Origin: Deroplatys truncata
Lineage: Eukaryota; Arthropoda; Insecta; Mantodea; Mantidae
Assembly: GCA_030765065.1 (NCBI GenBank)
Contig: CM060979.1
Location: 104,892,350-104,956,349, forward strand
Direction of reading: 5' to 3'
DNA length: 64,000 nucleotides
In this document: positions 5,190 through 51,125 of the stretch, one piece after another
Numbering within the stretch: position 1 is the first letter of the stretch
How the letters are laid out: every line of letters starts with the position of its first letter
Program-made: the position numbers and the translations under genes
Notes under the pieces: model-generated
Seen by the model: only the letters and a program-made list of their open reading frames with translations
Databases searched by the model: none
What the model was told of the DNA's origin: nothing

Positions 5190-5690
5190 ATATAAAAAAT
5201 TCACTTATCATCCATGAGCGTTCAGAAAATTTGATAAAATATTCAACAAGTTTGGCATCCGATTAGTTCCTAAAAACAGATACAGCCTGAACAATTTACT
5301 GAACAAATCACTGAAAAACACAATCCCAAATACACTCAAATCAGGAATCTACCAGATCAACTGTGAAGATTGCGAAAAATCCTACATAAGCAAAACCAAG
5401 GGAAATTTAAGCATCAGATTGAGAAATATAAAACAGAAACAGACAAATCCGCTGTATCGCACCACTTTTGTCTGAGAACCACAACATTGGTCAAACCATA
5501 AAATTGTTAAAACCACTTTTCTCATCGCTAGAACTGACTATTTGGGAGAAAACTTTGACTGTCAAAAATGAAGAAAATGTCGTACATTATGAAATCCTGC
5601 CAATGAATAGGTTGTTAGAGCTTCGTTACTCCACCAATAGATGGCAGCAGGAACATGCCCTCAAAAACGCTCCAGATTTATTAACTTAGT
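5190..5690 (+). mobile_element. Penelope-like element (PLE) fragment, endonuclease end
   Basis: With one or two frame changes the + strand encodes the C-terminal part of a PLE protein: KFTYHP near 5205, SGIYQINCEDC (5341-5375; GIY motif plus CX2C), YISKTKGN in place of the usual YIGQT-type motif, and DKSAVSHHF. The tail continues to about 5687. This is the GIY-YIG nuclease that PLEs carry after their reverse transcriptase. The glycine of the YIG half has become serine, so activity is unlikely. The RT part is absent. Similar fragments lie at 6700-7397 and 45195-45900. Confidence 0.75.
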
Positions 5691-6008
5691 AAGTGAAGGT
5701 TTTATGTAAAAATAGTGTAACTCATTCCTAATTCAACTTTAATTGCTTGGTTTATATAAGTAGACTGAAATCATATTAAAATGTAACTATAATTGCTCTT
5801 CATACTATTACAGTGCAGAATTTGCGATGTTTAATAACACATGCAATGTTATATAAATTAAGTTCATAGCATCATTCAGTACTTAATTTAACCTTAAGAT
5901 GCACCCAGGTTATAGGATATAGGCAATCAGCGATTATGGTGGAGAAGGAAGGTGATTAACAAACCTTTGAACTGAAGGAAAGAATATTACAAAGCAGTAT
6001 ATATATAT

Positions 6009-6699: not shown

Positions 6700-7397
6700 T
6701 CATAATAGCTTCAACTCTAGTTTCACAAACAAAACAGCAAAATTCCAGTGGCAAAAAGCATTCTACCAGATCACAAAATTAAAGAAAAAGAAAATGGCCA
6801 AATTAAAAAGTTCACTTATTACCCTTGGACATACTCTAAATTTAAGAAGACATCAAAGACTAAAACATAAACCTAGCATCACACAATAAGCCAAGCTTAA
6901 TGTAGCTGATGATTTGAGCTCATGCTCATGATACATGTTCAGCAAAATAAATAGGTGTGTGAAGATAATAAGAGTGTTTAGGCTGACTCCACTCAAACAA
7001 TCAGGGATATATCAAACATATTGTTGTGATTGCTGCCAAGTACGTAGGGGAAAAAAAACAAAACCTAGAAGCCAGAGTCAAGGAACATTTTAGAAATATT
7101 AAGTACATTTTTTACCCATAACCATGAAATCAACCCAACTGCAAATCATCTACATAAAATCTGCAACAAATCTCCCATTGGAACTGACAATGTGGGAGAA
7201 AATAAGCATTTTGAAGAACAAGAATTGCATAATGAATTTTGAGGTATTGCTGCAAGACCAACTCAGCAAATTCATCATTCCACTACCTCTACGAGTTACC
7301 AGTTGCCAGATGTCTCCATGTCTACACAAGCATTGCCCTAGCATCTCTCACCAGTCAGACCATCACTGAGGATGGGAACAAATTTTCCCCAAATATA
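6700..7397 (+). mobile_element. Penelope-like element fragment, second copy, with ribozyme-like 3' end
   Basis: Pieces of the PLE endonuclease region are readable on the + strand: a Lys-rich stretch near 6780-6880 aligned by position with the region before the GIY motif, SGIYQTYCCDCC at about 7000-7035, and NFEVLLQDQLSKFI near 7233-7275, matching the NFEILP-type C-terminus of the other copies. Frameshifts separate the pieces. The copy ends in a degenerate hammerhead-like motif (7366-7396). Confidence 0.65.
7366..7396 (+). ncRNA. Decayed hammerhead-ribozyme-like motif of PLE
   Basis: The motif is CTGAGGA (fits CUGANGA), then T, then a GGGAA...TTCCC stem, then CAAAT where GAAAC is expected. 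It sits at the same place relative to the coding end as in the other PLE copies. The missing GAAA core means it should not be catalytic. Confidence 0.4.
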
Positions 7398-28640: not shown

Positions 28641-28700
28641 TAATTTAATTGAATCTTGACTCAGTGGGTACACTAAAACTTCACTTACTTGGAATTAATC

Positions 28701-28738
28701 GAACATGTTTTAAAAGCACCACTTGCTTTCATCTTCAG
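28701..28738 (-). ncRNA. Hammerhead-ribozyme-like motif of PLE, left arm
   Basis: The - strand reads CTGAAGA, T, a GAAAGCA...TGCTTTT stem, then AAAAC and the octamer AACATGTT. CUGANGA is intact. The CGAAAC core has become TAAAAC, as two CpG-type changes would produce, so cleavage is unlikely. Confidence 0.5.
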
Positions 28739-29037
28739 CTTTTTTCCGTCTGAGCATGCCGGGAATTCGGTCTATAGATGTAGGTGGTGTGGAAGTGGTG
28801 TCATCTGGTGTGTCCATGATGAAGCTGTTTAGATTGTTAGTGGCTGGATTTCAAAGTTCATTACCATTTCCATGTTTTAAAACATACACATAATCAAATG
28901 CATGAAAATGGTATGAACTTTGAAATCCTGCCACTCATCAATCTAAGCAGCTTCATCATGGACACATCAGATGACACCACTTCCATGCCACCTACATCTA
29001 TGGACCCAAATTCCCGGCATGCTCAGTCAGAAAAAAG

Positions 29038-29074
29038 CTGAAAATGAAAGCCAGTGGTTCTTTCGAAACATGTT
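29038..29074 (+). ncRNA. Hammerhead-ribozyme-like motif of PLE, right arm
   Basis: The + strand reads CTGAAAA (one change from CUGANGA), T, a GAAAG...CTTTC stem, GAAAC, then the palindromic octamer AACATGTT. The TGA stop of the PLE frame lies inside the first core element. Compared with the left arm, each copy keeps the core half the other has lost. Confidence 0.55.
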
Positions 29075-29129
29075 CGATTAATTTCAAGTAAGTGAAGTTT
29101 TAGTTTATCCTCAAGATTCAATTAAATTA

Positions 29130-39373: not shown

Positions 39374-40583
39374 TTATGACACATCACTGTTACTAGCTTC
39401 TAAATCTTCAAAATTAGTCAAGCATCTTGTTGCTTGTAATAAAGAAAAGTAAGAGTAAGTACTTTGTATGATAAATAAATTATCTTAGTTATTTGCATTA
39501 ATAAAGAGTGTGATTACTCTCTATTTTCAACATTTTAAGTGCCTTTTTTCCTGCCTATTTTAACCAAAACAAATGCCTGAACTTCCAGGTTCTAGTTATA
39601 AGCATATGTGATTGTCTTTTATTTTGTTTGTGTCTTGTGTATGTTTTCCAAGCATCATTAAAATCTCAATTGTCTCACTTTCACTTAAAACCACTATAAT
39701 TTTGAGTTGATTTCTACAAATAAACTGCATCAATAACAGCAGAAAATTTATTAAAGAAAATGCTTTGTCCTTTTAGCATTCAATTTAATGTTCAGTTTTT
39801 AAATTCTTGTTTAAAACCCTACAGAATTAGCTGTACTGCATGCTGTGCTTAATTTGCAATGTTTAGGTGCAATAATCCAAAAGGTTTTATGCAATGTTAG
39901 TAATACTTTGCTGTGATTTAAAACTTTGAATTAACCTGATTAGTCCAAAATGGATAAAGAAGATCTGTGGTGAATATCAGTGCTCCTTTTTCTGTTTCCC
40001 TTTACAAGAGTTTTGACTAGGATTGCTCTGTTGCATATGATTTCCTGTACATAAAACCAAGGAAGAGTATTTTTATTGAACTTGTATCTGATGTCCAAAA
40101 TTCCATGTCTATGGGAAACTAAAGGAATGGGCAGTTTTTGTACTTTTCATTGTAATGTGTTTCCCACAAAGGAATTATGTCATTTTATGGAGGTCACTGC
40201 TGTCGGCATCCAATTAAAAGTTCAAGTTTATATATTTTGCACTGTAGTAATGTGATCAGAAAATGCTTTGCATATTGTAGTGAGTACATAAAGGGATATT
40301 TGACTTCCCTGTTTTAAATGATTGCATTAGAAACAAAACAGTGGAACACAAATGTTGTAACTCTTTCATATACTCGAGTTGTTTCATTTCACTTCTGTTA
40401 TTTTCATATGACACAACAAAGTAATTCGTCATCATTACCATACAAATGGTTTATTGTTGAGTTTGGTTATTTGTTAATAATTAGTAATATTTCAATTCAA
40501 AATGAAGGATTCTCCATCATATAATAGATATGTTTACTGTAGTATATTGTGTTTGTGTCCTACTTAGAATTTGTGTACACCTT
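39374..40583. other. UBAP1 intron 1, nothing recognised
   Basis: No features recognised. Confidence 0.4.
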
Positions 40584-40730
40584 ACTTGTCCTATTTATGT
40601 ATTCTGGTGAGCCTGCTAGCTCTAGGAAATGTTGACATACTCTAAGGTTTACATATTACTTGTCCTGTTTACATATTCTGGTAAGCCTGCTAGTTGTATG
40701 AAATGTTGACATGACTCTAGGGTTGCCAAC
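40584..40730. repeat. Tandem duplication, 74-bp unit
   Basis: 'acttgtcctatttatgtattctgg' begins at 40584 and a diverged second unit begins at 40658. Both contain 'gcctgctag' and 'gaaatgttgacat'. Confidence 0.85.
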
Positions 40731-41319
40731 CTGCAGTGAATGAAATGAGAGACACACGCATTAAAATAGGAACATTTCACAAAACTAAGAAATGTTTTAA
40801 AAATCTTACACCAATGCATGCTTAACATACTCATGAAATTTACTTTTCTGTTAATATTATGTTTACCTAGTACTATAACTACATATAAAATAGTTAACAC
40901 TAGCTTTTATTAACAGTCTATTAATGTGTGCTGGAGGTAAGTAAACTCAGTTTTTCCAAGTTTTTTCTTCAAATGCTCAACATCTGACTTGATTATAGAA
41001 AGAAATTTTTGCAACCCATGTTCATTGAAAGCAAAGCTCATGTTCCAATCAAAGACAATCTACAGTTATTTTTGTACCAGTTCTCGTTTTATGTTAGTTA
41101 CACCCCAACAAAATAAACTTTGCTTTTAAGAACTGGAAGCGATAGTGGCACAAGAAGAATGATTATGTACTATTAGTTTTAACCAATTAGTAAACAATGC
41201 TATGAAAAGGCTAATAAGATGGATTTCTTGCAAGACAGGATGTTGCAATTATTTTGTGGGACAACCACTAATAATAAAGGTCACATAATCTTAATTTGAA
41301 ATTCAGGCCATCTTGTATA
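40731..41319. other. UBAP1 intron 1, nothing recognised
   Basis: No features recognised. Confidence 0.4.
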
Positions 41320-41715
41320 GCAGACATTCCTAAAGCATGCACTGCAGCACCCAGGGACACCATCAAGCACAAAGAGCATCGCAGCTGTCTTGATACTTTG
41401 TATCACATAATCCCTCATCAATTGACTTACCTGTGTGAATAATTATTTAGCATAAGCTTACAGTGCCTCAACATTGTGAGATCCGGATACAAGGCCCAAG
41501 TCTGTGAGTGGAGTGTGCATGTATGGAGCCACGATACAGTGTGCCTATTTCCTAGAATTTGTTGCTAAACAACAATATCAAATTTTTGTAAAATGCTCTA
41601 CAAGTAGTACCTCTGTATACTTTCATGAGTGTTCGTGTTTCCATATAAAGACGAGCTGGCACATTGAGATGAGTCAGCTTGCAGTTTATGTAACTAGTGC
41701 ATTGTGACATGTTAA

Positions 41716-44700
41716 CATGAAAAGATTTTTAACAACATTGCCAATGAGACAAGAACAAGATGTTGTTGCACCAGGTGAGAAAATGATAGAAGCTGCTTCT
41801 GGATCTCTTAAAACAAAGTATAGAAAATAGACATTATGGTTTTACTTGTGCTGAAGTCAGTGGCAAAATGCACTCTGAATTTGTTCTTTGTATGAAAGTT
41901 TTATCCAGTAAGTCTCCACTCCCTAGTAAACTTAAACAATGCTTGGAAAGTCTTCACTGAAGTGTGATTAGGAAACCAAGGGACTTTTTATCAAGGAAAT
42001 GAATAGCAGTCTGTTGTTTTTTTTCTAAACATTCTCCAGTTAACAGTAATGCACTTTTAGCTCCCTATAAAATGGCTTACTAAGTTGCCCAATGTAAAAA
42101 GCCTCATACAATAGTATACTAATATTTGTGAAAATTGTAACACCGTGAAAGAATGGTCGAATATATCCAAACTCTGTGGATGTGTTTAACAATGTGCCAG
42201 CAATAAGTGATTAGGATTGCAGAGAGATGTGGTACACAAAGGACCAGGAGCTCCCTGTCTTGGTGTCTGACAAGGTCAATGTTTACGCCAAGTTTAGTCA
42301 GTAAAGAGTTATCAAACAAGGTGGAAACATGACAGCAAGTACTAGTATGCCTCGTCGACATCAAAGGGCACAATATCATCATGTGAGTGAGATCAAATGG
42401 GGCAGAATGATTGGTCTTAGGAAGCGGGTGACATTTTGACTCATACAAGGCATGCTGCTACAACAGTGATGCATGTGTGGAAGAAGTGGTTGGTGGATAG
42501 TAGAGGATTGTACACAGTTACAAGTGGGTACTGGATCACACAGTATGATTCACAGCACTGGTTGACCACCATCTTATTATCATGGCCATAATGGACTGTA
42601 CAACTTCGTCCACAGTGTTGGCTTGACTCTGGAGTACTGCAACAGATGTCAACCTGTATGCATCGATGGTTCGATGTGTCTGCTGTGGATTGGATTGGTT
42701 GCAGACATGCCATTGCATTGGCTTCCATTGTCCAGAAACCACAAGTGCCTCTGACTGCAAAGGGCACGTGAGTATACCCCTGGCATGCTGAGTAGCAAAA
42801 GGTAGTGTTTTCAGACGAGTTCTGCTTCAACCTGTCCAGTGATGGCTGCATGTGTGTTCAACTGTACCATGGTGAGTGCAATGTGTAATCCTGCATTGTT
42901 GAGCAACATAACAGACAAACACCAGATGTGATGGTTTGAAATGCCTTTGGTTACAACAACCAATCTCACTGCCTAGGTATTGAGGACAATCTGAACAGCA
43001 ACCAGTACACGAGGAAAGTTTTAGAGCCCAAGGTACTCCCTCTCCTTCAGGCAAATCTACAGTCCACATTTCAGTAGGACAATGCCTGGCCACATATTGC
43101 AAGGAATGTGCAAGCCTTCGAAGAATGGTGGGTACCATTGCTCCCCTGGCTTCCATGTTCGCTTGACATGCCGCCCATCAAACATATCTGCGATATGGTT
43201 GGTAAGCAACTTGTTCATCGCAATCCTCTAGTAACCATTGTTGATGACTTGTGAGCTCACATACAAAATGCATGGAGGGAAATTCTCCAGGAACTTATCC
43301 AGAACCTCTTTGATTCCATACCATGGTGTTTAGTTTCTCTGATTGCAGCGCTTGGAGGCAACACAAAATAATGAATACTCAAGTTCAAAGGTCATGTACA
43401 GATCTGTAAACTTAATCCAGTGTATTGCCATGTACCTAATCCGTGGTACAAAGTTCATTTCAATCACATGTTTCCTTCTTGGTTCAATTTTCATAAACAT
43501 TAGTGTAGAAGAGTTGATGTTGCCTGCTGCTGTTGATATGACTGAAATTATGCTCGGGGAGAATGCTGGTATTCAGCTTCTCAAAGTGCCACTGTTCAAT
43601 AACAATCAGCAGGAGGATGGATGACATAGCTATAGACATTACAGATCTGCTTTTAAATGGCTTGAAAGACAAAAGAGCTTGCAATTCAGATTGATTAGGC
43701 AGTTAGTCAACATGCACATTTAATATACTATGTTAGATTTGTTAGTCAGAAACCGTTAATTGAAGATTTATTGTTCTGCAAAGCGATGGAAGATGGTACA
43801 ACTGGAAAAGACTTGTTTGAGGTTATGGAACACTTTTATGGCAACAACAAAATTAACTGAGAACAGCGTGTTGGAATATGTACATATGGCACATGATTAT
43901 TCACTGGTTTATACCAAAGACTAAAAACTTGCATTCTTTCCAACATACCTTACGCTGTTTGGACTCACTGTGTAATATATAGAGAGGCTTTGGCAGCAGA
44001 AAAATTTAGTAGAGAATTGGACAACACTTTAAAATCCATGATACAAGTAATACACTTTATTAAAAGTAGGTCAAATAAAGCTAGAAGACTCTGCTGAAAT
44101 GTGTAATGACATGGGTGATGAACATTTGTATCTTTGTTTTATAACAGTGCTTGGTGGTTGTCTCTGGGAAAGTCCTTGCTAAGATTGTACAAACTCAGGA
44201 ATGAAATGTACTCATATTTGCATGATGGAAATCATGCCCATGCTGGTATGTTTGTTGACAAAGATTTCTTAATTAATTTCTTCTTGGCCTTTTAACCGAC
44301 CTGTTTGAAAGCTTAAATATTCTGAACAGCTCCTTGCAGGGTAATAATGCAAACATTTCCAGCTCTTCAATAAAGTTGAAGGATTCAAAGAAAAAAGCTT
44401 TCACTTTGAAAGAACAATTTGATAAAAGGTGATTATACAATATTTCCTTTTTTGAATCAGTTACTTCAACAAAATGACTTCATGCTAAAAGATGAACTGA
44501 AAAGTATGTTCATCAACCACTTATCAAAATTGGGACTCCATTTTGAAGAATACCTCCAAAAAGATAAAGTCAAATCATTAATGAGAAGGCACGGAATTTC
44601 ACAAACAAGGAAACGGAACAGCTCATTGACATTTATATGGACTCATCTTTGAAATCGAGGTTTGTGTCTCAGTCTTTGTTTGAATTTTAGTGCAGCATTA

Positions 44701-44830
44701 AAGATGAGTATCCAGTAATGAGCAAGAAAGTGCTTCAAGCTTTAATACTGTTTGCCAGTTCTTACCTTTTTTGAGTGTGGTTTTTCTGGTGTTGCTTTAT
44801 CAAAAATTACACCAAGATACCATGAACTGA
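41716..44830 (+). pseudogene. hAT transposase with BED zinc finger, split by Tc1
   Basis: The ATG at 41716 opens MKRFLTTLPMRQEQ. After a shift the BED finger region reads YGFTCAEVSGKMHS, FVLCMKVLSSKSPLPSKLKQ (about 41843-41950). Just before the Tc1, CKKPHTI (about 42091) is readable, and directly after it EELMLPAAVDMTEIMLGE (43508-43562) continues in the same frame. IDDIAIDIT-like sequence, YAVWTHCVIYREALAAEKF (about 43948) and the C-terminal FECGFSGVALSKI (about 44770) follow. Stops and shifts are frequent. It resembles the ZBED5/SCAND3-related hAT group. Confidence 0.8.
42117..43505 (+). mobile_element. Tc1-type transposon nested in the hAT
   Basis: The 1389-bp element is flanked by TA (42115-42116, 43506-43507). 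Terminal repeats of about 25 bp are visible: TACTAATATTTGTGAAAATTG at the left and the complement of CACTAATGTTTATGAAAATTG at the right. The + strand encodes a decayed Tc1 transposase: MPRRHQRAQYHHVSEIKWGR (42347), VVFSDEFCFNLSSDG (about 42802), DNAWPHIARNVQAFEEW (about 43079) and PPIKHICDMVG (about 43171), where the final Glu of the DD34E triad has become Lys. Removing it leaves one TA and restores the hAT frame. Confidence 0.92.
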
Positions 44831-44849
44831 TCAAAAATAAAATGCACTT

Positions 44850-45190
44850 CCTTTTTATCTTATTTATTTATGTATTAAAGTCGCTTTAACCAGAAATCAT
44901 ATTGGGATTACAACGTATACATAGATTTTATATTATAAACATTCAGTTACAAACAGTTATATAAGCTAACATCTTTCAAAAACTGTAGGATGATACATAA
45001 ATATGGTTCATTAAGAGCCTCATACAGATTGTTAGGAGCACCATTATTAAGTCTCTGAATTACAGGTTGAGAACACTGTAATTAGATGCTGGACCGTGAG
45101 TGTGACTTGACACTGATCACCGTAACTGGAGGATTGTGAATTAGAAGATATGTGTGAGGTAACGTGTGCCTGATGCAGAGTCTGTTGCCA
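44850..45190 (-). mobile_element. 3' end of a LINE (C-terminus and A/T-rich tail)
   Basis: On the - strand the end of a LINE ORF2 is readable (NNGAPNNLYEALNEP, then ILQFLKDVSLYNCL, about 44955-45070). A short 3' UTR and a (aaat)n-type tail at 44850-44885 follow. It probably belongs to the same element as the 5' half at 45905-47990, with a Penelope-like fragment in opposite orientation between them and the reverse transcriptase missing. Confidence 0.6.
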
Positions 45191-45194
45191 TTTT

Positions 45195-45900
45195 TGTAGC
45201 CATCTTAAAAACAGCTAGAAAAAATGGCTACAAAACAGATATGGTGGATAGGTTAATCAAAAAATTCTAGCAACAAAAAATGATAAAAGAAAATACAACC
45301 CTCAAACCACACAAACAAAATCCGACATACAAAAAAGTCACATTTCACCCATGGGCACATAACAAATTCAAGAAAATTTTCAATAATAGCAATGTGGCAC
45401 TCATTCCCGAAAATAAATTCAGCATAAAATTCCTCATAAATGCAAATCAAAAAGAAAAAATGCCAGCTCATAAAAAATCCGGGATTTATAGAATAGATTG
45501 CAAGGATTGTGAATAAATCTATATTGGTCAAACTAAGCGTAACATAGAAACAAGGCTTAAGGAACATTTTCAAAACATCAAATACAGGGAAGAGGAAAAA
45601 TCAGCAGTTGCAGCACATTTTTGGATACAGGGACATGAAATTGAGGACACAGTATCACTTATCAAGCAGGCACAAAAACCTATGGAATTAAACATTAGGG
45701 AGAAAATATTTCTTGGAAATTTCGTCCAAGGTTAATGAATTTCGACATCCCTATGGACAAAAATTTGATTACTAAACTTGTAGAACCACCACTAGAGGGA
45801 CAAAGAAACATCTGTAACCATCAGAGGAAAGCCAACCAGTTGCAATCAGCTGACGATGAGGAAGTGATTCCTCGAAACTAGTTCTAAGGTATTGAACCTA
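45195..45900 (+). mobile_element. Penelope-like element fragment, best-preserved endonuclease
   Basis: The + strand reads KTARKNGYKTDMVDRLIKK, stop, then KKVTFHPWAHNKFKKIF (about 45328) and KSGIYRIDCKDCE (about 45475; GIY plus CX2C). A TAA stop follows, then IYIGQTKRNIETRLKEHF (about 45516) and SAVAAHFWIQGHEI (about 45602). This is a PLE GIY-YIG endonuclease with both GIY and YIG motifs intact. The frame ends QSADDEEVIPRN and a TAG stop at 45878-45880, inside a hammerhead-like motif. The RT is absent. It is inserted between the two halves of a LINE. Confidence 0.85.
45850..45884 (+). ncRNA. Hammerhead-ribozyme-like motif at PLE 3' end (best copy)
   Basis: The sequence is CTGACGA (45850-45856; fits CUGANGA), one extra T, and a 6-bp stem GAGGAA/TTCCTC closed by a GTGA tetraloop. 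Then follow GAAA (45874-45877) and the self-complementary octamer AACTAGTT. All core nucleotides of a type I hammerhead are present, except that the extra T precedes stem II and stem III is too short to fold alone. Small hammerhead variants linked to Penelope-like elements and acting as dimers are known, and this layout fits them. The predicted cut follows GTT at 45881-45883. The TAG stop of the PLE lies in stem III. Confidence 0.7.
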
Positions 45901-45904
45901 TTTT

Positions 45905-47990
45905 AGTGAAATTTTATATTTGCAACCACTTCTATATATTATAGATATGTAAGTGTTTATTGGAATGGTATGTTCAGCAGAAGAAAGGATTGCATTGGTG
46001 AGTAAGGAGATAATGTCATCAATCTGAAGTTGTAAGAAATCATCAGGACTAGGAAGGTTGCCTACTGCATTTTGAAGTGTGCATCTGTAACGACTCCAGT
46101 CAGTTTGGTTGAAATTCCAAGTTGTGTGCCTTGGATGTTCTGTAATCTGATATGCTATAAAGAGAATTATGGGGAAATGATCACTCCCATAAGAGAAGAA
46201 GAAACTGACCAATGAAACATTGGTGCAATATTTGGGGATGATATAGTGAGGTCAGTATTGCTATAGCTATTTCTGAGAGACTTCAAAACATGTAGGAGCT
46301 AGTGAGTTTAGGATTACCTAATCATGAGTTTCTGCAACAGATTCAATTATTTTCCTTCAATAATCAATTGACTTACTGCCCCATAATGTGTTTTGGCTAT
46401 TGAAATTACCCAAGATTACAAAAGGTTGAGGAAGCTAAGCAATAAGATCTGTAAGAGTAGAAATATCAAAATTTGTGCTGTTGGGAAGATATAAGTTGCG
46501 GACACAAATCTATGTAGTGAGAAAAGTAGAGACTGCTACCACTTCCAGTTGAGTTTTGAGTGAAATGTATTTATGAGGGATGCTATCGTTAACATAGATA
46601 GCAACACCTTCATTTGCAGTCTGTTTAATCTGTTCTTGTGATATGCAAAGTATTTCCAAATCTCTCCTACGTAGTTATTTTGAAAGTTAGTCTCTTGCAA
46701 ACGCTCTAGTACAGGATCATGTGTATATAGGAGTAAGTGCAAGTATTCTAAGTGCAGGTATTTATATTCCATGCAATACAGTCAATTCAGCAGCCATAAC
46801 TCATAGAAAATTACTGTTGAACAGAGTCCACTGATGGATCAATATGCAACTCATTACAGCTAATATTTTGGTTAATAGTAGTTTGGAGTTTCTACCTAAT
46901 TCAGGTGACCTGCTTTCTCATACCAGAACTAGGGAGAGAAGAGTTTCCACCAGATCAAAAGGGTTAGATTAGTTTAGTGCAATGTTCAGTATGTTGGACA
47001 AGCCACCAGCATTTTCATAGAAATTGCAGAATTGTATAAAACTGATTCATATTCACCAGAGCCTTTTTCAAAGATTGCTTTAATAGGTAGAAGAGCATCT
47101 TGTATTGTTAAATTTTATTACACTTGGATTTTTTAGATGGAGGCTTAATAAAATCTTGTTCATCATCTTTATCCTCAAATATAACAGTTGCTGTGGAATT
47201 AATTTAATTCAGAGTCAGAATTGAGGTTATGATCATCAGGCTACTCTATTGTGCTGCTAGTTGATGAAATAGGTCTTTTAGTGCGAAAAGAATTTATCAC
47301 TGGAACTTGAGTTGCAGTAAGAGGTGCTTATTATGCTTAATAGGTTTCAGGTATGGCAGAATTGCTTGCCTAATAAAAAAGTATAGGTAGAAAGATCTAA
47401 TTTGCTTGTGTGATGGTCAGAGTCTGAGATTTCAGAGCTAGAATCTGAAGTGTCATATTGGGGTCTGTTGCTGGGTCAGCAACAGCATGTGAATCAAACT
47501 GCTTGTTGTTTAGTGTAGTGAGTTCCATCAAAAGTGGGGGAAACTCGCTGTTTCAGCACCAATTTTGTCAGTATTTTCAATCTGTTTTTGAGGAACAAGA
47601 CTTACACTGACGAGCCAAGTGGCCCTCCATTTTGCACAAAAAGCACATTGGGCTTTCAGAAGACACATATTTCCAATAATTTGTATCATCATAGTAAAGC
47701 TGGAAGCTTTCAAATAGTTTTTCAAAGTCCTCCTGTTTAACATACAGCTGTCTGCAGAGGCTCAATATATGAGAGAATCCTGGAGTGCTTACTCCTGCTC
47801 GTATATGTGTGATAGTAGAGCAAGGAAAAATGTCTAGTTGTGCCAGCTGTTCTTCTAGTGCATGGTTAGGAATTATAGGGCACACATTTGAAGCATGACA
47901 CATTTCTGTTTGGTAATAATAGGGTTGAGGTGTAGGGGCACATTATTGACAACAATCATAGAATGGTTGCTGCGTAGTTTGTCAGCTTTT
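45905..47990 (-). mobile_element. 5' half of a LINE (ORF1 and endonuclease), no reverse transcriptase
   Basis: The - strand carries, from right to left: a gag-like ORF1 with a CCHC knuckle CFLCKMEGHLARQC (about 47595-47650), a low-complexity linker, and an ORF2 endonuclease. The last reads EGVAIYVNDSIPH (about 46565-46605), VILGNFNSQNTLWG (about 46390-46430) and GSDHFPIIL (about 46155-46180). It stops at about 45905, before the RT. LINEs normally lose their 5' end, so loss of the middle points to a later rearrangement or to the PLE insertion. Frameshifts are present throughout. Confidence 0.7.
47540..47903 (-). pseudogene. LINE ORF1 (gag-like, CCHC knuckle)
   Basis: A 108-residue open frame begins MCHASNVCPIIPNHALEE, contains KQEDFEKLFESFQLYYDD, and holds one CCHC zinc knuckle. 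The domain order suits a retrotransposon nucleocapsid-like protein. It is incomplete at both ends. Confidence 0.6.
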
Positions 47991-48021
47991 CTTTTGTTTG
48001 CCAGATACATACTATGTGACC

Positions 48022-48346
48022 ACGAGAAGAAGGCAAGTGAGAGGAATGTGTAACATCAACACTTTCCTGCATCCGTATCATATTTATGCTTGCCGTGTGG
48101 ATATGATAAGCATGTTAGGAGGTTATAAACTACTACACGGTATTGTAACTACTACACAGTGTTGTCAAGTACTCACCCATGGCAAGAGCCAATGCGTTAA
48201 CACCTATTACGGCGGTTGCTGTTCTACTAGTATCAGATCTGGCAGCATGGGTGGTTCATTTGCACACGTAAACACATTTCGTAGTAAACAATCGACAGTA
48301 CGTGAGCAGATAAACAGTTACAGAACCCCGCTTGCCTTCTTCTCGT
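48022..48346. repeat. 325-bp segment with 16-bp terminal inverted repeats
   Basis: acgagaagaaggcaag (48022-48037) and cttgccttcttctcgt (48331-48346) are perfect complements. The inside is GC-richer than its surroundings and has no recognised coding. It is MITE-like in form. No target duplication was identified. Confidence 0.5.
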
Positions 48347-49511
48347 CCAACAGTACATATTCTGTTACTAGAAATTCGTGAAATATAATGTATGTTTGCA
48401 GGGTCATTGAGTTTACCAACTGCAAAAATATAATCTCTCACTGGTGTGCCATCATGGGCATCTATGATTATAGCCGTTCTTTAGTAAGAGCACTTTGTGC
48501 TTTTGCAGTGTAACTGCATGGAGCGTGGTTATGTTATTTACATGGAGAGCAGGACACTGTGTAGCTGTAAATGCTGTGTAGACGTACATTGTTCAGTTGC
48601 ATATCTTTTCTGTAGTGAAGCAGTAGGGTTAGGTTTGGTATCCATCATTGGTAGCATCAAAACATGTGGGCACAAAGGAATTTGTGACCTGTGTCGAGTT
48701 CGCTTGGGCACTACACGCAAACACAATAATTCTTCTTTAAAACACTTGAACTATGTAACAAAATGAAAAAAGAAAAAAAAATTAACATACAACGTAATAT
48801 TATTAAATTGTTATGGAATGTATCCTTAGTATATACTGTTGTTTATAAATCCAAGGCCTCCTCTGAGGTACTTCCTTCTCATTAGAACAGAAAGTTTAAA
48901 ACAATGTTTTATGAAGTTAATGTAAGATGCAGTTTTTAATTTAAATTATAAATATAAAATTTTATAAAACAATAAAAATTCAAGACATATTTAAAATTTA
49001 TTTTAACAATTTTTGGGGCGAATTTAATTGATTTTTAATTGGGGGCACTGCCAAAGATAATTTGCAGATTAAGGGAGTTGTGGCTCTAAAATATTTGGGA
49101 ACCCCACCTGTACAGTATGGCAAAGGAAACAGCCCACATGGTTCCTATTGGCTTTCTTTGAGTTCAAGGAACCCGCAAACAGATCTTGTAACACACAGAG
49201 GTTGCTGGCTTACCTGCAGATGTAAAAAAGACATGTAATAAATAGAATGTGGAGGTGTATCTGTATATATTTATTCTGGACTTGCTACCATTAATCCTTC
49301 TTGATATTTGGTCCTGAATTGTCCATTATCATTTTCAAACCCAGAAACTAATGTTATTACAGTGTTTAACATTGTATTGTGATTGCTGGCAGTTCTAGAA
49401 AAATAAAATTCTTCCACTTGTATTAGAATATGACTTTTTACATTATGTTTTAAATCTATAGCAATTTTATTTGTATAGTTTGGAATAATATAAAATTTGT
49501 TTATGTTTCAG
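48347..49511. other. UBAP1 intron 1 end; possible hAT terminus
   Basis: Nothing coding is recognised. 'ttgggaaccccacctg' near 49097 resembles the complement of a hAT end (CAG..GG..TTCCCAA). The stretch ends in the acceptor 'ttatgtttcag' of UBAP1 exon 2. Confidence 0.35.
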
Positions 49512-49630
49512 TCTTTTCATACATGGATGGCATTCCAGTTAAAATTAGTGAGCAGTATAAACCACCAAGGAAGGTAGTGCTACCAGTAGGCTATCAACAT
49601 AGATTACCTGTTGAAACCATTGCAGAAGAG
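49512..49630 (+). CDS. UBAP1: UBAP1-like ESCRT-I subunit, coding exon 2 (UMA domain)
   Basis: The acceptor is ttatgtttcag and the donor GAG|GTAAAG. The 119 nt give two bases plus 39 codons: VFSYMDGIPVKISEQYKPPR, then KVVLPVGYQHRLPVETIAEE. This matches the UMA (UBAP1-MVB12-associated) domain of UBAP1 in order and spacing (FSYLDDVPF..., ...LPIGF). UMA mediates assembly with the other ESCRT-I subunits. Phase 1 in and phase 0 out fit the flanking exons. No changes suggest a pseudogene. Confidence 0.9.
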
Positions 49631-49929
49631 GTAAAGTTGTGATAGATTGTTTTAAGCTTAAGTGGCAATATGTAATAAATAGGTATATATTCTCTCCAAC
49701 ATAAAAAGAAATCATCGTAAATACACTAATGAAATAAAATAAAACCTGTTGTAAGCAGAAAGCCTAACTGCATTATTTTTAAGGCTGGTTCACAATAACA
49801 AGGAGCAGAAATCAGAACGAGAACAACAAAGTTAAAACACGTGCATACTTCCAACTTTTATGTTTGTCCTTAAAGAGACCTTTTAGCACGTTAACATCAA
49901 AGAGGCATTTTTTCTGCTTCATGGGCGGA

Positions 49930-51125
49930 TTGAAAGTGATTGAAGGTGTTAAAAAAAATAGAAAATTACGGGATTAGAGTGGTAGCAAATAAATGGCTGA
50001 AATCATACCTTAGTAATCATAAGCAATTTGTGGAGATAGCAAGTAGAAACAAAGTAAAATCTACAAATGAAATATTTAATTCTAATATGCGCCCTGTTAG
50101 CATAGGAATCCCTCAAGGTTCAGTCCTATCACCAGTTCTGTTCCTTTTATATATTAACGATTTACCTAATAATATCTCAGTAGGGTACATCACCTTATTT
50201 GCAGTTGATACAAACATATCAGTTTGTAGTGGCAGTACACATGAGGTAGAGCAAAAACTAGCAAAAGTTAATGAAAATATAACAAGATGGTTCTTGCAAA
50301 ATTGTTTGGTAATAAATAAAGAAAAGACACGTGCAATATAATTTAATCACTTAAAAAATAAAAATCAGTATGAATCTCATTTGGTAATAGAAGATAAGCC
50401 AATAAGCTATGTAGAACAGGTTAAATTCTTAGGCACATGGATAGATTCAAATTTAAGATGGGGTGTGCAGGTAGAGAAATTAGCAGAAGGTTGAGCCAGG
50501 TATGTTTTGCAATGACTGTTTTAACGGAAAGAGTTAACCTTGAAGTTTTGAGAAGGTTGTACTTTGCATATTTTCATAATATAATGAAGTATGGGATTAT
50601 ATTTTGGGGGAATAAGGGAGGTATTATTTTAAAAATTCCAAAACATTTATTAGAAATATGTTTGTTTAAAGGCAAAAGAGAATCCTATAAATCACTATTC
50701 CATTTATTAAATATTTTACCCTTTCCATGTATATATATTAGAAATATTATTATACATTAAGAAACATTTAATGGAATTTGAGAAAACCAGGACAAACACA
50801 GATATTGCACAAGAAATGGAGAGCATCTAAGTAATTGTCAACTTAGAATCTCACTATATGAAAAAAGTGTTATGTATAATGGCAGTATACAATAAATTAT
50901 CTCTTGATATCAAGGAAATCTGTTCTTTTGACAAATTCAAAAAAAAAGTGCGGGCATTATTAATAAAAAAAGTTGGTTTTTATTCATTAAAGGAATACCT
51001 AGAGTGTATGTAACAACAGTTATGTGTATGCATGTGCATGCCTGTAATATACTATACTATGTAATATACTATTAAGTGACATGTCCTATATCATTATGTG
51101 ATCAAACAGGATGAATAAAAATCTA
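49930..51125 (+). mobile_element. CR1/Jockey-like RT remnant with mutated catalytic site
   Basis: The + strand has an open frame at 49940-50338 with NKWLKSYLSNHKQFVEI, IPQGSVLSPVLFLLYINDLP (about 50107-50165) and LFAVDTNI (about 50197) where LFADDTN is expected. The centre of the catalytic FADD motif has thus lost an Asp. VKFLGTWIDSNLRWG and a thumb-like C-terminus follow in other frames. The 3' end is a short taatctaatctaa repeat at 51120-51136, as in CR1-like elements. It is 5'-truncated. It lies in UBAP1 intron 2. Confidence 0.8.

What the first reader, a model, noticed from the sequence alone, without database searches (positions are those of the whole stretch)
45850..45884. Hammerhead-ribozyme variant overlapping the end of a Penelope-like ORF
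The motif has CTGACGA, an extra T, a 6-bp stem with GTGA loop, GAAA, and then the palindrome AACTAGTT. All conserved hammerhead core bases are there, but stem III is too short to form alone, which suits cleavage as a dimer. The PLE stop codon lies inside stem III, so protein end and ribozyme share sequence. PLE-linked small hammerheads acting as dimers are known; the coding overlap and the inserted T are what I would look at.
Basis: partly seen in the sequence, partly recalled or inferred. Interest (0 to 1): 0.75.

Follow-up and report, generated by a model that had tools for sequence, protein, structure and literature searches.

The report
Decayed Penelope retroelement hammerhead ribozymes
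The sequence is a real but probably decayed self-cutting RNA motif (hammerhead ribozyme) at the end of a broken Penelope-like jumping gene, and further copies of the motif sit at the matching place in other broken Penelope-like pieces nearby, woven into the end of the protein-coding sequence.

Summary
The motif at 45850-45884 is real and as described: all hammerhead core bases, one extra T before a perfect 6-bp stem II, GAAA, palindrome AACTAGTT. It ends the reading frame of a 5'-truncated, broken Penelope-like element (PLE) with a GIY-YIG domain. Rfam does not call it.

What settles it was not in the finding: a relaxed scan of both strands (at most one core mismatch) gives four sites, 115-134 nt past the same ORF landmark in four of the five PLE tails found here. 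All four carry the extra T, and stems II and III mostly keep pairing through two-sided changes. So the T is a shared trait. In two families the ribozyme lies in frame in the C-terminal coding end; the stop inside stem III is seen only in this copy.

Minimal, probably dimeric PLE hammerheads are known, and one overlaps its ORF start. I file this as a member with two variant features not found in the held papers; the two key papers are not held. Against activity today: weak stem I, competing folds, one intact core of four.

The parts
45184..45881 (+). Copy A: 5'-truncated, broken PLE remnant (linker, GIY-YIG domain, C-terminal tail); the left border is judged by eye
   Evidence: frames; Pfam PF01541 GIY-YIG on 45517-45729, E 6.1e-5, 23.7 bits, cut-off 22.6
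45514..45516 (+). in-frame TAA inside the GIY-YIG domain of copy A
45735..45881 (+). C-terminal tail of copy A in the frame that runs into the ribozyme, MNFDIPMD...SADDEEVIPRN*
45850..45884 (+). Copy A hammerhead motif: CTGACGA, extra T 45857, stem II 45858-45863/45868-45873, GAAA 45874-45877, palindromic stem III ACTAGT 45877-45882, H17 T45883
45879..45881 (+). TAG stop codon inside the stem III palindrome (seen in copy A only)
45837..45852 (+). competing hairpin CAGTTG-CAAT-CAGCTG that takes up C3, U4, G5 of the core in the 67-nt and 131-nt folds
6802..7393 (+). Copy B: decayed PLE remnant with GIY-YIG fragments and tail MNFEVLLQDQLSKFI
7366..7397 (+). Copy B hammerhead: CTGAGGA, T, GGGAA/TTCCC, CAAA (G12 lost)
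28901..29129 (+). Copy D+: plus arm of a head-to-head inverted pair of a third PLE tail (208 of 236 aligned positions identical)
29038..29074 (+). Copy D+ hammerhead: CTGAAAA (G8 lost), T, GAAAG/CTTTC, GAAA, palindrome ACATGT, T
28641..28874 (-). Copy D-: minus arm of the inverted pair
28702..28738 (-). Copy D- hammerhead: CTGAAGA, T, GAAAG/CTTTT, AAAA (G12 lost), palindrome ACATGT, T; in the frame RRKKAEDESKWCF*NMFD*
5191..5745 (+). Copy C: PLE remnant whose tail lacks the motif but keeps a 3' flank resembling that of D (GTAAGTGAAG)

Best explanation
It is the relic of a minimal type I hammerhead ribozyme at the 3' end of endonuclease-bearing Penelope-like elements, of the kind thought to act as a dimer. 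In living ancestors two ribozyme copies (in a tandem transcript or in two molecules) would pair through the self-complementary stem III and swap stem I strands, cutting after the U that corresponds to 45883 and so releasing element-length RNA, perhaps only with the PLE protein bound. Shown here: core, stem II, palindromic stem III with two-sided changes between families, shared extra U, shared place in PLE tails, and in-frame position in two families. Inferred: dimer action, cleavage and its role. Copy A itself is probably weak or inactive today.
For: Four sites with at most one core mismatch and a stem of 5 or more, at 115, 134, 125 and 123 nt after the ATG of the MNF codon, in 4 of the 5 PLE tails found (A, B, C, and the inverted pair D+/D-; counting D once, 3 of 4); no site elsewhere in 850 overlapping tiles, first hit per tile, all but the last 100 bases of each strand; random 300-mers hit 33 times in 20000. 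With Watson-Crick pairs only: 3 sites observed, 0.1 expected (40 shuffles). Loop-excised alignment of the four copies: 31 of 32 cells paired, 6 of 8 pairs changed on both sides, 0 of 500 shuffles as high on these and the covariation score, and sliding the partner breaks it. Palindromes ACTAGT (A) and ACATGT (D) differ by a two-sided change. GIY-YIG domain in copy A. Head-to-head inverted structures are called the most frequent inverted arrangement of Penelope elements (PMC3846280, passage), as in D. Published PLE hammerheads are minimal type I, occur in tandem and may cleave as dimers (passages: PMC7761336, PMC6155905, PMC7229834).
Against: No Rfam hammerhead at gathering; HH10 only at E 3.7. 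Stem I duplexes are no better than shuffles in any of four copies (0.61, 0.57, 0.70, 0.27 of 1000 shuffles as good), copy B has an A-A mismatch next to the core, and adding stem I to the modelled dimer of A costs energy (-22.6 to -15.2 or -11.2 kcal/mol). C3-U4-G5 of copy A are 0.81-0.91 paired in rival folds. Only 1 of 4 copies has an intact core; copy C has no motif. In one search one of five measures, further pair types, was not above shuffles (7 against a mean of 7.3), the rows are four from three families, and B does not keep the outer pair of the palindrome. No PLE relative was found outside the window.
Confidence: 0.88

Rival explanations
1. Chance: a coding tail that happens to look like a hammerhead.
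For: The motif is only about 34 nt; with 2 core mismatches allowed there are six further hits in the window (1.98 expected), and the stem-free pattern is at its chance level (5 against 5.7). Rfam does not call it.
Against: Four sites with at most 1 mismatch, all at the matching place in PLE tails and none elsewhere in the tiles scanned; paired changes in both stems. As a side check, 0 of 34 viral-contig matches to a stem-free form of the motif have a stem of 4 or more.
Confidence: 0.03
2. What is conserved is the protein tail (A-[DE]-D-E ... R-N); the RNA motif is its by-product.
For: The CTGA-to-GAAA distance is a multiple of 3 in all four copies (24, 24, 27, 27), and the frame carries similar residues (ADDEEVIPRN, TEDGNKFSPN, AENESQWFFRN, AEDESKWCF*N).
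Against: Protein similarity does not by itself explain a stem II of different sequence in each family, nor the palindromes CTAG and CATG.
Confidence: 0.06
3. A going further than the main reading: copy A itself still works as a ribozyme today, in a host transcript.
For: Core and stem II of copy A intact; an 8-bp AACUAGUU contact between two molecules is predicted for the longer RNAs.
Against: Broken, 5'-truncated element; the second ribozyme would have to come in trans; weak stem I and rival folds; the best predicted dimer of the 52-nt core uses another palindrome that hides the core.
Confidence: 0.15

Closest known systems
Minimal type I hammerheads of Penelope-like elements (Cervera and de la Pena 2014; Lunse, Weinberg and Breaker 2017; neither text held, known here from passages in PMC7761336, PMC6155905, PMC7229834 and from reference lists)
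   Same: PLE host element, type I order, reduced stem III, dimer action proposed
   Different: Extra U between A9 and stem II in all four copies, and in-frame overlap with the ORF's 3' end; I could not check whether the two unheld papers already describe these
Hammerhead of Poseidon PAc of Anolis carolinensis (PMC11167929; main text section seen)
   Same: PLE hammerhead sharing sequence with the ORF; cleavage there was seen only with PLE protein
   Different: Overlap there is with the ORF start, here with the ORF end
Terminon 3'-end hammerheads of bdelloid rotifers (PMC6431247, passages)
   Same: PLE-related hammerhead near the 3' terminus
   Different: Those elements attach to telomeres and, as recalled, lack the PLE-type endonuclease domain in the RT ORF; here a GIY-YIG domain is present
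Amphibian retrozyme/satellite hammerheads (PMC7229834, passages)
   Same: Short stem III, better cleavage as dimers
   Different: Non-autonomous short repeats

Membership tests
Hammerhead ribozyme | Core C3 U4 G5 A6 N7 G8 A9 / G12 A13 A14 / A15.1-U16.1 / H17 (list as in a PMC3088659 passage) | tested here: met
   Copy A: all met, with one extra U after A9. B, D+ and D- each lack one core G
Hammerhead ribozyme | Stem II closing on the core | tested here: met
   Copy A 6 bp; the five pairs next to the core stand in all four copies, 4 of 5 with two-sided changes
Hammerhead ribozyme | Stem I | tested here: inconclusive
   First pair G-C possible in A, D+ and D-, A-A mismatch in B; duplex energies no better than shuffles in any copy
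Hammerhead ribozyme | Stem III | tested here: inconclusive
   Only possible between two strands: palindromes ACTAGT (A), ACATGT (D+, D-); in B only ATAT
Hammerhead ribozyme | Match to a curated covariance model | tested here: not met
   No gathering hit; HH10 11.9 bits against a cut-off of 75. Not taken as defining for the minimal PLE form
Hammerhead ribozyme | Self-cleavage after H17 | not testable with these tools
   needs an in vitro assay
PLE minimal hammerhead | Lies in a Penelope-like element with GIY-YIG endonuclease | tested here: met
   Pfam GIY-YIG in copy A; B and C related to A by tblastn; D linked by its MNFEI... tail only (weak: E 0.2 to B)
PLE minimal hammerhead | Present in both pseudo-LTRs (tandem) | tested here: inconclusive
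   Copy A is 5'-truncated; no second copy near it in 40000-50000 or as a blastn match in the window
PLE minimal hammerhead | Cleaves as a dimer | not testable with these tools
   The palindrome suits it; not shown
Penelope-like element | Telomerase-like reverse transcriptase | not testable with these tools
   No RT was seen upstream of the linker of copy A in the frames printed from 45100; read as 5' truncation

The most novel reading that the evidence does not exclude
In these elements the ribozyme is built into the end of the reading frame so that one RNA cannot serve both as message and as cut template: in family D the predicted cut (after 29074) falls inside a sense codon, two codons before the stop, so cleavage would part the message from its own stop codon; in copy A it falls 2 nt behind the stop. 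The shared extra U would then be a compromise that keeps the frame (GAN GAU) while tuning down cleavage until dimers or PLE protein build up.
Probability: 0.12. Interest if true: 0.6.

Novelty: new variant of a known kind. Interest (0 to 1): 0.36.

Why it matters
The role of PLE hammerheads is called a mystery in a review seen in passages (PMC7761336). A ribozyme that shares its bases with the end of the ORF in at least two families would be under a double constraint that can be tested in intact copies, and would let cleavage and translation be set against each other directly. If the two unheld papers already describe the extra U and the overlap, this is an ordinary further example.

Tried and rejected
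Rfam at gathering over the window and at E up to 10 over 45700-46050, 28690-29090 and 45830-45905: no hammerhead call above threshold; the microRNA-family matches (all below their cut-offs) fit the inverted repeat there. Whole-genome search: none held for this window. Relatives elsewhere: the endonuclease piece in viral contigs gave one distant match (L001, 48% over 31 residues, not studied further) and the tail gave none; an A-like DNA pattern gave none; a looser, stem-free pattern gave 34 viral contigs, of which 0 of 34 have a stem of 4 or more at the right place, so chance; the endonuclease piece in bacterial and archaeal genomes gave none. Pfam on the other two pieces of copy A: zinc_ribbon_6 below cut-off (E 0.048) and nothing. 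Six further scan hits with 2 mismatches (+14071, +54417, +62966, -63387, -36993, -22486) were not followed for PLE context. A covariance model was not built, because the alignment of B with D put the gap outside the loop. Stem I by duplex energy: no support. Dimer energies: stems II+III favourable, adding stem I not; the best predicted dimer of the 52-nt core uses another palindrome (TCAGCTGA) that hides the core. Papers: Lunse 2017, Cervera 2014 and the Terminon paper are not held, so 'not found in print' for the extra U and the ORF-end overlap rests only on searches of the held library and on the passages and sections named. PMC10085705 and PMC11722881 were seen in passages.

Full report
The observation. 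The 35 bases at 45850-45884 read CTGACGA-T-GAGGAA-GTGA-TTCCTC-GAAA-CTAGTTC. By the core list in a passage of PMC3088659 (position numbers otherwise recalled), every core base is present, A15.1 and U16.1 lie in the palindrome ACTAGT, H17 is T45883, and one T stands between A9 and stem II. The pattern with a stem of 4 or more occurs once in the window on both strands; 1500 shuffles give 0.089 per window, 0.015 with a stem of 6 or more, and 0.007 for a stem of 4 or more with palindrome and H17. Without the stem and with 2 mismatches the pattern is at chance (5 matches, 5.7 expected). Rfam gives no gathering hit, no hammerhead among 11 matches at E up to 10 in 45700-46050, and only Hammerhead_HH10 at 11.9 bits, E 3.7, in a 76-nt stretch.

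The host element. Upstream lie a linker and the GIY-YIG domain of a PLE (Pfam E 6.1e-5 for 45517-45729). The copy is 5'-truncated, has a TAA at 45514-45516 and a frame change before the tail. The last 61 codons (45699-45881, stop included) are open in the frame that crosses the ribozyme and stops at TAG 45879-45881; 310 of 5000 random positions of that length in the window are also open, so openness alone is weak evidence.

Other copies in the window. tblastn with pieces of copy A found two more PLE remnants, B (6802-7393) and C (5191-5683). A relaxed scan with Watson-Crick stems gave nine hits with up to 2 mismatches: A (0), B at 7366 (1), 29038 (1), and six with 2 (1.98 expected; not followed). 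For 0-1 mismatch, 3 were seen and 0.1 expected (40 shuffles), and each of the three has the extra T. The hit at 29038 sits in one arm of a head-to-head inverted repeat (208 of 236 positions identical, arms 28641-28874 and 28901-29129) whose plus arm encodes a tail starting MNFEILPLINLSSFI, like B's MNFEVLLQDQLSKFI (9 of 16 residues, E about 0.2, so weak by itself); the other arm carries a fourth motif at 28738 on the minus strand. With G-U pairs allowed and at most 1 mismatch, 850 overlapping 300-nt tiles (first hit per tile; all but the last 100 bases of each strand) give just these four sites, 115, 134, 125 and 123 nt after the ATG of the MNF codon of A, B, D+ and D-. The fifth tail, C, has none. 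Random 300-mers of the same dinucleotide make-up hit 33 times in 20000. D+ and D- are one duplication, so the independent count is 3 of 4.

What is shared. In all four motifs the extra T is there, and the CTGA-to-GAAA distance is 24 or 27, a multiple of 3. Copy A has an intact core; B lost G12, D+ lost G8, D- lost G12. Four rows from three families are few, and the tool warns that relatedness can inflate such scores. Still, CTAG in A against CATG in D is a two-sided change that keeps self-complementarity, as a dimer stem III needs.

Coding overlap. Copy A runs MNFDIPMD...SADDEEVIPRN* without break into the motif. In D- the frame from NLNSF runs to RRKKAEDESKWCF*NMFD*, the inner stop lying at the decayed bases around G12; D- has a frame change just after its MNFEI start, and D+ has one between tail and motif, its motif frame reading AENESQWFFRNMFD*. 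In B the motif frame differs from that of the MNF tail, so B gives no support for frame continuity. So the ribozyme lies in frame in the coding end in families A and D (in D pieced together from two broken copies). The stop inside stem III is seen in A only; in D the stop lies beyond the predicted cut.

Will it cut? Stem II is stable (pair probabilities 0.90-1.0). The palindrome gives a predicted 8-bp contact between two molecules for A and D-, not for B or D+. Against activity: stem I is no better than shuffles in any copy, the modelled full dimer of A is less stable than stems II+III alone, and C3-U4-G5 are 0.81-0.91 paired in rival folds: the hairpin 45837-45852 in the 131-nt fold, another pairing in the 251-nt fold. 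ViennaRNA does not score the hammerhead core, so these energies are only a caution. In the best published parallel, Anolis PAc, cleavage was seen only with PLE protein and was not needed for insertion in vitro (PMC11167929).

Known or new. Minimal type I PLE hammerheads that may act as dimers are known (passages), and overlap of one with its ORF start is published. I found no mention of an extra U after A9 or of overlap with the ORF end in the held library (searches; passages and one main-text section only), but the two key papers are not held. I file it as a member of the PLE hammerhead kind with two variant features, and rate the interest moderate to low.

Noticed in passing
window 28641-29129: Head-to-head inverted pair of a 5'-truncated PLE tail, 208 of 236 positions identical; the outer ends of the arms suggest the element's 3' end about 55-61 nt past the predicted cut.
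   Followed up: partly
window 29087-29097 and 5688-5698: After the motif (D), or where it should be (C), stands AGTAAGTGAAG, which looks like a 5' splice site (recalled consensus); a passage says PLE pseudo-LTRs contain introns. Copy A has AAGGTATTG at 45886-45894.
   Followed up: no
window 45846-45853: Second palindrome TCAGCTGA overlapping the core of copy A, used by the best predicted dimer of the 52-nt core.
   Followed up: partly
window 35745 (+) and 61567 (-): Two near-identical stretches LAPSDYHLFPKLKEHLAGR.FGDDDEVKNEVHHFF, recalled as mariner-like transposase (listing).
   Followed up: no
window 49940-50341: Fragment of a non-LTR reverse transcriptase (GIPQGSVLSPVLFLLYINDLP); label recalled (listing).
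   Followed up: no
window +14071, +54417, +62966, -63387, -36993, -22486: Six weaker hammerhead-like hits with 2 core mismatches, about three times the shuffled mean of 1.98.
   Followed up: no
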